From positions 1,336,643 to 1,381,522 of the forward strand of contig CP011806.1 in assembly GCA_001664505.1 (NCBI GenBank): a DNA stretch of 44,880 bases, given 5' to 3'. Source of the DNA: Acidobacteria bacterium Mor1. Its GTDB lineage: Bacteria; Acidobacteriota; Polarisedimenticolia; Polarisedimenticolales; Polarisedimenticolaceae. Positions within the stretch are counted from its first letter, which is position 1, and the number at the start of each line of letters is the position of its first letter. This document shows, in pieces, positions 419 to 3,316 of the stretch. The position numbers were made by a program, and so were the translations under genes. Below the pieces are notes generated by a model. The model did no database searches. It worked only from the letters and a program-made list of their open reading frames with translations, and had not been told where the DNA came from.

Positions 419-895
419 CTAGGCATCCTGCTTCATCGCGGTCTTGATCGCTTCGACGATGAAGTTCTGCATGGACGGGCTCTGGCCACGAACCGCGTCG
501 TAGACCAGGCAAGGCAGCTTCAGCGAAATCTGCACTCCGTTCTCGTTCAAACCGTCGAGCCACGCGGTGAACTCCGCCCAGGCCTTGAAGGTCAACCCCT
601 CGATCGCGCCCTTGGGGTAGAGCTCGATCAGCTCGATCTCGTCCTTCAGCCGGAACAGCACGTCATCTTCGCGATGATCGGCGAAATCGCTGTAGGCAAA
701 GAACTTGACCTCGCCGGCGGTCTGATCCTTGCCCTTGATCGAGACTTCGGGATTCTTGTTGCAGCGCATCATGATGTAGTCCCCTTTCCCGCGGAAATGG
801 AAGGCGAGAATGGGGTCGGTGCGCGGATTGTCGTCGGATGGGGTCTTGAGCGCCCGGTACACGCGGCGGGCGATTTCAGCGTTGGTTCTATACAT
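419..895 (-). CDS. Putative ribbon-helix-helix-type DNA-binding protein, 158 aa
   Basis: The ATG at 895 follows a clear AGGAG ribosome site (within 900-906, read on the minus strand). The N-terminal ~110 residues match no family I know. The last ~40 residues have the layout of a MetJ/Arc/CopG ribbon-helix-helix: a beta strand with alternating residues (VQISLKLP), a short helix (CLVYDAVRGQ), a turn, and a second helix (SMQNFIVEAIKTAM). Such proteins bind DNA as dimers through paired strands, often as tandem dimers on repeats about 8 bp apart. The divergent intergenic region upstream holds exactly such an array (1007-1110), and a good promoter lies at 943-971. Autoregulation, and control of the divergent subtilase, is therefore a reasonable inference. 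The family call rests on motif shape only. Confidence 0.6.
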   Translation of the reverse strand: MYRTNAEIARRVYRALKTPSDDNPRTDPILAFHFRGKGDYIMMRCNKNPEVSIKGKDQTAGEVKFFAYSDFADHREDDVLFRLKDEIELIELYPKGAIEGLTFKAWAEFTAWLDGLNENGVQISLKLPCLVYDAVRGQSPSMQNFIVEAIKTAMKQDA

Positions 896-942: not shown

Positions 943-971
943 AGTATACGGGTCGCTATGACCCGTCTCAA
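943..971 (-). promoter_or_regulatory. Sigma-70-type promoter of the ribbon-helix-helix-like gene
   Basis: Read on the minus strand, a -35 TTGAGA (966-971) and a -10 TATACT (943-948) are separated by 17 bases (949-965). The start codon is ~45 bases downstream. The spacer is itself an inverted repeat, CGGGTC-5-GACCCG (949-954 and 960-965). The -35 element overlaps a GTTGAGAC sequence resembling the GTGAGAC heptamer of the neighbouring array. Spacing and hexamers are seen directly; activity is inferred. Confidence 0.55.
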
Positions 972-1006: not shown

Positions 1007-1110
1007 GTCTCACTGTGAGACAGTGAGACCGTTTACGCGTCTCCACCCTCAAACTATTCAAAACAAGCAACTTACCCGGTGAGACCCTCGAGACTGTCTC
1101 ACCGTGAGAC
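1007..1110. promoter_or_regulatory. Operator-like array of GTGAGAC heptamers in 8-bp phase
   Basis: The heptamer GTGAGAC or its complement GTCTCAC occurs six times in 104 bp: 1007-1013 (inverted), 1015-1021, 1023-1029, 1079-1085, 1096-1102 (inverted) and 1104-1110. Starts at 1007, 1015 and 1023 are exactly 8 bp apart, as are 1096 and 1104. Weaker units (GTCTCCAC at 1039, TCGAGAC at 1088) fall in the same phase. Two perfect palindromes result, GTCTCAC-N-GTGAGAC at 1007-1021 and 1096-1110. The array lies in the 366-bp gap between the ribbon-helix-helix-like gene and the subtilase gene, just behind the former's promoter. No clear plus-strand promoter hexamers were found between the array and 1262. 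Confidence 0.6.
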
Positions 1111-1235
1111 TTTCTCCGTACTGCAACAGGAGGTCATCACCCCAAGTAAGCGCTTTAATTTCAGCACTTTAAGGCTCGACCCGAACACGGGACACAGGTC
1201 GGCCCCGGCCTTGCTCTAAAGGAGGGCGCCCCCGA

Positions 1236-1261: not shown

Positions 1262-3316
1262 ATGAGAAACCTCATCACAATCGCAATCGCAATACTCGCT
1301 GTCGGGTCTTGGGTTGCAGCCGCTCCGGACCACTTGGACACGAATCAGCCCCGAACCGGGATCCAAAAGATCTCGGGTGATTTGTCCGAGTTGCTGGAGC
1401 AGAACGGTGAGCCCCAACGGGTCATCGTGAGCTATCACGATCGCGTCGACGCCGGAATGCTCGAGCGTCTCGCGCATCGTGGCGCGGATGTCCACCGCCG
1501 CCTCGACAAGCTCGCTGCGATCGCCGGCACGATGAACGTCAACGAGATTTACGAGCTCGCCGCCGATCCGGCCGTCGCCTCGATCTCTCCGGACCGTCAG
1601 GTCTTCGGCTCGATGGACATCGGCGTGGGAGCCACCGCGTCCGATCGCATCGCCGAGAACCTGGGCTACACCGGCAAGGGCGTCACCATCGCGGTGATCG
1701 ACTCCGGCGTGGCGGTGACCGAAGCGATCCCGGCCGGCCGCATCCGCGCCGCTCTCGACTTCACCGGTGAAGGCGTGGTCGCCGACGGTTACGGACACGG
1801 CACCCACGTGGCCGGCATCATCGCCGGCTCCGGTCAAGGCAACGCGATCCGCGGCATCGCCCCCGATGCCGACATCGTCTCGCTGCGCGTCCTGGACGGC
1901 GACGGCGCCGGTTACGCCAGCAACGTGATCGAAGCCATCGACTGGGCCATCGACAACCGCGTCGAGTACGGGATCCGCATCCTGAACATGTCCCTCGGAC
2001 ATCCGGTTCGCGAGTCGTACACCACCGACCCGCTGAACCGCGCCGTGCAGCGCGCCTGGGCCGCCGGCCTGACCGTGATCACCTCCGCCGGAAACCGCGG
2101 ACGCGACGGCTACATGACCACCAACGTGCCCGGGAACGACCCTTACGTCCTGACCGTGGGCGCGATGAACGACCTCAACACGATCGAGCGGGCCGACGAC
2201 ATCGTCACCACCTACACCAGCCGCGGTCCCTCCGCCCTGGACCACGTGATGAAGCCCGACCTGGTCGCCACCGGCAACCGCCTGATCTCGACCCTGGCCC
2301 CCGGCGCCAAGGTCGGTTCCATGTTCCCCGACCGCATCATGCCCGACGGAAACATCGAACTCTCCGGTAGCAGCCAGGCCGCCGGCGTCGTGAGCGGTGG
2401 AGCCGCGCTGCTCCTCGAGCGGAACCCGATGCTGACCAACGATCAGCTCAAGACCATCCTGATGTACTCGACCGATCGGATCGAAGAGAGCCCCTTCGCC
2501 GTAGGCGTCGGCTACCTGCAGCTGGTCCGGGCCCTGGCCTACACCGGCCGCTTCCTCCCGATCCGCTTCAACAGCGCCTCGCCGATCGTGCTCCGCACCG
2601 AAACCGGCCTGGAGCTGCAGGCGGTGGACAGCCTCGCCGGCCGTCCGACCCAGCCCTCCAAGCTCCAGCGCCTGTTCGACGTGGTCGAAGCGGCGGGCGA
2701 GCGTGGCGTGGCCGCCCACGGCGCGCTGTGGAGCGACGGCGCTCTGTGGAGCGATGGTGCCCTGTGGAGTGACGGCGCTCTCTGGAGTGACGGTGCGCTT
2801 TGGAGCGATGGTGCGCTCTGGAGTGACCAGGCTCTTTGGAGCGACGCGGTCCTTTGGAGCGACTCGGCTCTCTGGAGCGACGGTGCCCTGTGGAGTGACG
2901 GTGCCCTCTGGAGCGACTCGGTGCTCTGGGGTGATTCGGCTCTTTGGAGCGACTCGGCCCTCTGGAGCGATTCCGCGCTCTGGGGTGACAGCGCTCTCTG
3001 GAGCGACTCGGCTCTGTGGAGTGACTCCGCCCTCTGGAGCGACAGCGCGCTCTGGGGTGACCAGGCTCTCTGGAGCGACGGCGCTCTTTGGAGCGACTCC
3101 GCCCTCTGGAGCGACAGTGCGCTCTGGAGTGACGGTGCCCTGTGGAGTGACGGTGCTCTGTGGAGCGACTCGGCTCTCTGGAGCGACTCGGTCCTCTGGA
3201 GTGACGGCGCCCTGTGGAGCGACTCGGCTCTCTGGAGCGACAGCGCTCTTTGGAGTGACTCGGCTCTCTGGAGCGACAGCGCCCTGTGGAGTGACGGCGC
3301 GCTGCTGGATGACTAG
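1262..3316 (+). CDS. Secreted subtilisin-like (S8) protease with 33 C-terminal hexapeptide repeats
   Basis: A serine protease of 684 aa, probably exported. Residues 1-20 form a Sec signal peptide (hydrophobic ITIAIAILAVGSWVAA). An inhibitor-like prodomain spans roughly 25-115. The catalytic domain shows Asp147 (VIDSGV), His179 (GHGTHVAG), the oxyanion Asn (SAGNRG) and Ser371 in GSSQAAG, where the family norm is GTSMAAP; Met and Pro of that motif are replaced. Residues 487-684 are 33 tandem hexapeptides: 32 of the form xALWSD or xALWGD (occasionally xVLW) and a degenerate last unit GALLDD. A ribosome site (GGAGGGTAGGAG) precedes the ATG. The gene faces a regulator-like gene across an operator-like array and ends at a strong terminator. 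Trp-rich short repeats occur in some other bacterial S8 proteases, but I know of no established role for them. Enzyme class is certain; substrate and repeat function are unknown. Confidence 0.9.
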   Translation: MRNLITIAIAILAVGSWVAAAPDHLDTNQPRTGIQKISGDLSELLEQNGEPQRVIVSYHDRVDAGMLERLAHRGADVHRRLDKLAAIAGTMNVNEIYELAADPAVASISPDRQVFGSMDIGVGATASDRIAENLGYTGKGVTIAVIDSGVAVTEAIPAGRIRAALDFTGEGVVADGYGHGTHVAGIIAGSGQGNAIRGIAPDADIVSLRVLDGDGAGYASNVIEAIDWAIDNRVEYGIRILNMSLGHPVRESYTTDPLNRAVQRAWAAGLTVITSAGNRGRDGYMTTNVPGNDPYVLTVGAMNDLNTIERADDIVTTYTSRGPSALDHVMKPDLVATGNRLISTLAPGAKVGSMFPDRIMPDGNIELSGSSQAAGVVSGGAALLLERNPMLTNDQLKTILMYSTDRIEESPFAVGVGYLQLVRALAYTGRFLPIRFNSASPIVLRTETGLELQAVDSLAGRPTQPSKLQRLFDVVEAAGERGVAAHGALWSDGALWSDGALWSDGALWSDGALWSDGALWSDQALWSDAVLWSDSALWSDGALWSDGALWSDSVLWGDSALWSDSALWSDSALWGDSALWSDSALWSDSALWSDSALWGDQALWSDGALWSDSALWSDSALWSDGALWSDGALWSDSALWSDSVLWSDGALWSDSALWSDSALWSDSALWSDSALWSDGALLDD
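2720..3313 (+). repeat. 33 tandem 18-bp units coding for the (G/S)ALWSD hexapeptide
   Basis: Each 18-bp unit reads roughly GGCGCTCTGTGGAGCGAC and encodes one hexapeptide. All 33 units stay in frame. The first position varies (Gly, Ser, Gln, Ala), position 2 is Ala or Val, and Ser5 becomes Gly in three units. L, W and the final D are kept in units 1-32. Synonymous codons differ between units (gcg/gct/gcc, ctg/ctc/ctt, agc/agt), so the array is not one very recent expansion; the peptide looks conserved by selection. The repeat produces long spurious open frames in other frames and on the opposite strand. Confidence 0.95.

What the first reader, a model, noticed from the sequence alone, without database searches (positions are those of the whole stretch)
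1007..1110. Array of GTGAGAC units in 8-bp phase between a ribbon-helix-helix-like gene and a repeat subtilase
Six exact heptamers (three runs in strict 8-bp steps) plus phased weaker units occupy 104 bp of the divergent intergenic region. Eight-bp-phased tandem sites are how MetJ-type ribbon-helix-helix dimers bind, and the adjacent gene product has a C-terminus of that shape. This looks like a small self-contained control system for a secreted protease with an unknown repeat domain. The array is seen directly; the pairing of protein and site is inference.
Basis: partly seen in the sequence, partly recalled or inferred. Interest (0 to 1): 0.75.

Follow-up and report, generated by a model that had tools for sequence, protein, structure and literature searches.

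The report
Sigma-54 enhancer of a repeat protease

Summary
The GTGAGAC cluster is real (6 copies in 104 bp; at most 2 in shuffles). Its conserved core is two 15-bp palindromes, GTCTCA-N3-TGAGAC, 89 bp apart. The same pair, 89-92 bp apart, lies upstream of the orthologous LWxD-repeat subtilase in ten genomes of the class, followed in all ten by a GG-N10-GC sigma-54 promoter. So it looks like an enhancer for the protease. It does not follow the 158-aa gene: 25 of 28 orthologues lack it. Exact palindromes occur three times in the 5.985-Mb genome: two here, one 57 bp before the ATG of a 1609-aa protein with kinase, STAND-like ATPase, GAF, sigma-54 activator and Fis-HTH domains. Orthologues of that protein sit directly upstream of the protease in two genomes, carry the palindrome at their own promoter in several others, and are absent from the two order genomes that lack the sites. 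A paralogue clade carries the same half-site at wider spacing at its own promoter. Sigma-54 activation through an enhancer is a known mechanism; the kinase-STAND-fused activator with an assigned operator and target appears to be a new variant. No binding or expression was measured.

The parts
1007..1021 (.). UAS1: 15-bp palindrome GTCTCACTGTGAGAC, predicted dimer site of the Fis-HTH activator
   Evidence: Exact GTCTCA-N3-TGAGAC; conserved as a pair in ten genomes; only 3 exact matches in the 5.985-Mb genome, reversed control 0
1096..1110 (.). UAS2: 15-bp palindrome GTCTCACCGTGAGAC, 89 bp from UAS1
   Evidence: Spacing 89-92 bp in ten genomes
1023..1029 (+). Accessory half-site GTGAGAC, 8 bp after UAS1
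   Evidence: Half-sites outside the palindromes are enriched, 13 against 0.8 expected, but in only five of ten genomes
1079..1085 (+). Accessory half-site GTGAGAC
1200..1214 (+). Sigma-54 promoter CGGCCCCGGCCTTGC; GG at 1201-1202 (-24), GC at 1213-1214 (-12); start site about 1226 (inferred)
   Evidence: 8 of 10 consensus positions; all ten genomes score 7 or more; shuffles give 1.8 of ten on average, never more than 6; rpoN present
1262..3316 (+). Target gene: S8 subtilase (684 aa), signal-peptide-like N-terminus, about 32 LWSD hexapeptide repeats
   Evidence: Pfam Peptidase_S8 1.3e-45; repeats
419..895 (-). Divergent neighbour: conserved 158-aa protein with an RHH-like C-terminus; shares the intergenic region, not shown to be part of the circuit
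943..971 (-). Own sigma-70-type promoter of the 158-aa gene (TTGAGA-17-TATACT); its -35 overlaps a GTCTCA half-site
   Evidence: Read from the sequence; similar elements upstream of orthologues in the order

Best explanation
The array is the upstream activating sequence (enhancer) of the divergent subtilase gene. Two 15-bp palindromes (GTCTCA-N3-TGAGAC), centred about 212 and 123 bp upstream of the predicted start site, bind dimers of a bacterial enhancer-binding protein through its Fis-type helix-turn-helix. The activator loops to RNA polymerase-sigma54 at the GG-N10-GC promoter (1201-1214) and opens it by ATP hydrolysis, switching on the secreted LWSD-repeat protease. The activator is most likely the 1609-aa protein at G000:C1:5324279-5329108, in which a Ser/Thr-kinase domain, a STAND-like ATPase, TPR-type and GAF sensory regions are fused to the sigma-54 AAA+ domain and HTH_8. 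It carries the same palindrome at its own promoter, so it probably regulates itself. Shown by computation: palindromes, fixed spacing, sigma-54 element, co-occurrence, linkage, regulator-promoter site. Inferred: binding, looping, activation, the signal sensed, the role of the kinase, and the sign of autoregulation.
For: (1) Ten genomes carry the pair upstream of the orthologous subtilase at 89-92 bp, although the rest of the region has diverged. (2) All ten have GG-N10-GC at 98-112 bp from the second palindrome; RpoN is present in all 11 genomes tested. (3) In the order, all 16 exact palindromes in seven genomes lie at the subtilase (11) or just upstream of a regulator start (5); reversed control 0 in 41 genomes. 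(4) Exact pairs occur once per genome in five genomes, always at the subtilase; control 0. (5) The regulator gene lies directly upstream of the sites and subtilase in G013 and G010. (6) It is absent from G001 and G005, the two order genomes without palindromes (all candidates scored). (7) The own regulator has Pkinase, AAA_16, GAF, Sigma54_activat and HTH_8; HRD, DFG, Walker A and GAFTGA motifs can be read in its sequence. (8) A paralogue clade has TGTCTC-N6-GAGACA once per genome, at its own promoter, split from the N5 group by one branch (98/93).
Against: No binding or expression data. The genome has over 20 other proteins matching the sigma-54 activator region, so the assignment is comparative. 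In G004 only a C-terminal fragment of the closest regulator was found and no site upstream of it. In G009 the likely regulator is cut off by a contig end and its site has one mismatch. Three further paralogues (G003 C7, G004 C218, G008 C19) have neither palindrome. A few exact palindromes in other families of the class lie inside genes or next to unrelated genes. The 89-92 bp spacing is about 8.5 helical turns, so the two sites face opposite sides of the DNA, which is not the textbook arrangement.
Confidence: 0.82

Rival explanations
1. The 158-aa ribbon-helix-helix-like protein binds the array in MetJ fashion and represses itself and the protease.
For: Divergent neighbour in three genomes; C-terminus QISLKLP...PSMQNFIVEAIK looks like strand-helix-helix; AF2 gives helices 126-135 and 142-157; the gene is linked to the regulator within about 10 kb in several class-level genomes.
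Against: 25 of 28 orthologues have no array; the array stays with the subtilase where the two genes are apart; G001 and G005 have the protein with an unchanged strand but no site; no RHH profile or fold match.
Confidence: 0.05
2. The palindromes are a sigma-54 enhancer, but for another activator; the palindrome at the kinase-fused regulator's promoter only means that this regulator is another target of the same unknown protein.
For: Many sigma-54 activator proteins in the genome; the site at the regulator promoter is single, and no sigma-54 element was seen by eye in the upstream sequence printed.
Against: Co-absence in G001 and G005; adjacency in G013 and G010; a paralogue clade with the same half-site at another spacing at its own promoter is hard to explain unless these proteins bind their own promoters.
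Confidence: 0.11
3. The region is a short mobile element or transcript hairpin: the 18-nt arms 1007-1024 and 1093-1110 are 94% complementary.
For: Inverted-repeat arms 68 nt apart; a terminator-like use of the palindrome after the regulator stop in G018.
Against: Arms keep position and spacing across families while the spacer is not conserved; found only at the protease or regulator in the order; each arm is itself palindromic and no Rfam family matches.
Confidence: 0.02

Closest known systems
Sigma-54 promoters with one-component enhancer-binding proteins (for example the Desulfovibrio vulgaris regulons reconstructed by comparative genomics, PMC4641369)
   Same: Inverted-repeat or palindromic activator sites upstream of sigma-54 promoters, activator gene linked to its target, and inferred autoregulation
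   Different: Input half here is a Ser/Thr-kinase plus STAND-like ATPase plus TPR-type region plus GAF; target is a repeat subtilase; two palindromes at fixed 89-92 bp
NifA/NorR-type GAF-AAA+-Fis activators (NCBIfam TIGR01817, NF003451)
   Same: C-terminal GAF-Sigma54_activat-HTH_8 half aligns
   Different: Scores are below the curated cut-offs (361 against 529; 335 against 476), so not a member of either; the kinase and STAND-like parts lie outside the aligned stretch
FHA-domain enhancer-binding proteins of Myxococcus (Jelsbak 2005, seen here only as a reference in PMC12288465)
   Same: Link Ser/Thr phosphorylation with sigma-54 activation (from general knowledge)
   Different: There the activator has an FHA domain; here a kinase domain is in the same polypeptide
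MetJ/Arc/CopG ribbon-helix-helix operators
   Same: 8-bp step between neighbouring half-sites in the window
   Different: Conserved unit is an inverted 15-bp palindrome at a sigma-54 promoter, not tandem direct boxes; it does not follow the RHH-like gene

Membership tests
Sigma-54-dependent promoter with distal enhancer | -24/-12 element GG-N10-GC with TTGC | tested here: met
   10 of 10 orthologous promoters score 7 or more of 10; shuffles 1.8 of ten on average, maximum 6
Sigma-54-dependent promoter with distal enhancer | Activator sites roughly 80-250 bp upstream of the start | tested here: met
   Palindrome centres 1014 and 1103; promoter 1201-1214
Sigma-54-dependent promoter with distal enhancer | RpoN in the genome | tested here: met
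   PF04552 in 11 of 11 genomes
Sigma-54-dependent promoter with distal enhancer | Transcription requires RpoN and the activator | not testable with these tools
   No expression data
Bacterial enhancer-binding protein (candidate regulator) | Sigma54_activat AAA+ domain with GAFTGA loop, and Fis-type HTH | tested here: met
   PF00158 1.1e-68, PF02954 1.3e-16; GAFTGA read in the translation
Bacterial enhancer-binding protein (candidate regulator) | Binds the palindrome | not testable with these tools
   Supported only indirectly by site distribution, linkage and co-absence
Named activator families NifA, NtrC, NorR | Score above the curated NCBIfam cut-off | tested here: not met
   361 against 529 (NifA), 345 against 559 (NtrC), 335 against 476 (NorR)
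MetJ-type RHH operator | Array recurs upstream of orthologues of the RHH-like gene | tested here: not met
   3 of 28, all explained by the adjacent subtilase
MetJ-type RHH operator | Tandem boxes in 8-bp steps are conserved | tested here: not met
   Conserved feature is the palindrome pair; the 1015-to-1023 step is not conserved
Ribbon-helix-helix protein (158 aa) | RHH domain by profile or fold | tested here: inconclusive
   No profile hit; AF2 C-terminal helices present, strand region pLDDT under 50; no PDB match under E 0.001

The most novel reading that the evidence does not exclude
A family of single-polypeptide signalling activators (Ser/Thr kinase, STAND-like ATPase, TPR-type region, GAF, sigma-54 AAA+, Fis HTH) that control their own genes and secreted repeat proteases, with paralogues in one genome kept apart mainly by the spacing between identical half-sites (GTCTC-N5-GAGAC against GTCTC-N8-GAGAC).
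Probability: 0.5. Interest if true: 0.75.

Novelty: new variant of a known kind. Interest (0 to 1): 0.6.

Why it matters
It gives a predicted operator, promoter class, target and autoregulatory site for a kinase-fused sigma-54 activator in a class of Acidobacteriota known here mainly from metagenome-assembled genomes. If the binding holds, it allows a direct test of how a Ser/Thr kinase and STAND-like module can gate sigma-54 transcription inside one protein, and of whether half-site spacing alone separates paralogous activators. It also points to what controls a secreted protease whose repeat tail has no known function.

Tried and rejected
MetJ-like pairing of array and RHH-like protein: rejected by orthologue upstream regions and by the array following the subtilase. 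RNA element in the leader: no Rfam match; the conserved TTGCTCTAAAGG block was first taken for a leader motif and proved to be the -12 end of the sigma-54 promoter. First regulator tree labelled the G006 C60 fragment as carrying the N5 site; one search places another regulator of G006 at the end of contig C49, whose promoter has the N8 site, so I now take C60 as the C-terminal part of that gene and re-ran the tree; the joining of C49 and C60 is inferred. Exact palindromes after the regulator stop in G018 and G029 were set aside as terminator-like. Literature searches for a kinase fused to a sigma-54 activator showed no such case in the titles, abstracts and passages seen from the open-access library, which is weak evidence of absence. 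The AF2 model of the 158-aa protein gave no usable fold match.

Full report
What was checked. Their total in the window is ordinary, but their clustering is not: six in 104 bp, against at most two in 100 shuffles, and no other 7-mer in the window clusters so strongly. Read as units, they form two 15-bp palindromes, 1007-1021 and 1096-1110, with extra half-sites at 1023 and 1079.

Which gene does it belong to? The 158-aa protein is conserved in 28 of 100 relatives, all in the same class. Relatives in public records include Candidatus Polarisedimenticola svalbardensis and other Acidobacteriota. Only three of the 28 upstream regions hold the array: the window, G009 and G007. In these three the divergent neighbour is the subtilase. 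Searching for the subtilase and for the palindrome independently showed that the palindrome lies upstream of the best subtilase homologue in G002, G003, G004 and G006 as well, where that gene is elsewhere in the genome. Allowing a few mismatches gave the pair in ten genomes, 89-92 bp apart.

Promoter. Aligning the ten regions shows little conservation apart from the palindromes and a GG...TTGC block. That block is GG-N10-GC, the -24/-12 sigma-54 element, in all ten, 98-112 bp from the second palindrome; shuffles reach this in 1.8 of ten on average and never more than six. RpoN is encoded in all 11 genomes tested. Thus the array has the layout of a sigma-54 enhancer. Accessory half-sites are enriched (13 against 0.8) but only in five of the ten genomes, and they explain why the window looks like an array rather than a pair.

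Regulator. In G013 and G010 the gene directly before the palindromes and subtilase encodes a 1670-1730 aa protein with Pkinase, AAA_16, TPR, GAF, Sigma54_activat and HTH_8 domains. In the window's genome the full-length orthologue (43% identity to the G008 protein) is at C1:5324279-5329108 with the same layout; TPR repeats are not scored by Pfam there, so I call that part TPR-type. The exact palindrome GTCTCA-N3-TGAGAC occurs three times in the 5.985-Mb genome, twice in the window and once 57 bp before this regulator's ATG. The same single site stands 57 bp before the start codon in G002, G006 and G008, 36 bp in G003, and with one mismatch at about 75 bp in G007 and about 47 bp in G009. Across the order, all 16 exact matches are at the subtilase (11) or the regulator (5); the reversed control gives none in 41 genomes. 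G001 and G005 have neither palindrome nor regulator; the second search of these, with the STAND/TPR region, scored all candidates.

Paralogues. Some genomes have a second regulator clade whose promoters carry TGTCTC-N6-GAGACA, that is the same GTCTC half-site with eight instead of five bases between. This pattern occurs exactly once in each of five genomes, each time upstream of such a paralogue, and not in the other six searched. In the tree of the C-terminal regions the two operator classes are separated by one branch with 98/93 support. This covariation of protein clade and operator spacing is the best indirect evidence that these proteins bind these palindromes. The number of cases is small (five and five), and three further paralogues have neither motif.

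Mechanism. I propose that the regulator binds both palindromes, contacts sigma-54 RNA polymerase by looping over the roughly 100-bp interval, and activates the protease gene in response to a signal integrated by the kinase, STAND-like and GAF parts. The kinase has HRD and DFG motifs and the activator domain has Walker A and GAFTGA (sequence), so both may be active. The sign of autoregulation is unknown; the regulator promoters look sigma-70-like with the site just upstream (read). The signal and the protease substrate are unknown.

The 158-aa protein. Its C-terminus resembles a ribbon-helix-helix but no profile or fold search confirmed it. It has its own sigma-70-type promoter (read). It is linked to the regulator within about 10 kb in several class-level genomes (for example G010, G013, G028, G032), so a functional relation is possible, but the array does not depend on it.

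Limits. Most genomes are metagenome assemblies; the G004 and G009 regulators are incomplete. The literature library is open-access only. No experiment supports binding. A precedent for this type of inference, comparative reconstruction of sigma-54 activator regulons including autoregulation, is PMC4641369.

Noticed in passing
L207:5855-6204 (G000); L201:6824-7156; L133:1877-2257; L199:2345-2749: Small proteins of about 110-150 aa with signal-peptide-like N-termini and ends such as DPF, NPW or NPF flank the regulator; no Pfam match. In G007 and G008 a two-mismatch palindrome lies 64-80 bp upstream. They may be further targets.
   Followed up: partly
window 2718-3309; loci L092, L093, L095, L107, L110: The xx[LVI]W[GSTA]D hexapeptide repeat tail occurs on S8 subtilases across the class, also on ones without the palindrome pair. 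Function unknown.
   Followed up: partly
L136:6094; L197:859: In family f5 the same palindrome follows or overlaps the regulator's stop codon and, in G018, looks like a transcription terminator hairpin.
   Followed up: partly
L195:6302 and 6393: G039 has a mismatched palindrome pair 91 bp apart at the regulator's 3' end; the downstream gene was not identified.
   Followed up: no
window 419-895 and orthologues: A 158-aa protein family with 67-81% identity across most families of the class and no Pfam or NCBIfam name; strongly conserved GEVKFFAYSDF and PSMQN blocks.
   Followed up: partly
L207:11414-14887 (-): A kinase-less paralogue of the regulator lies convergent with it in the window's genome, 3' to 3'.
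   Followed up: no
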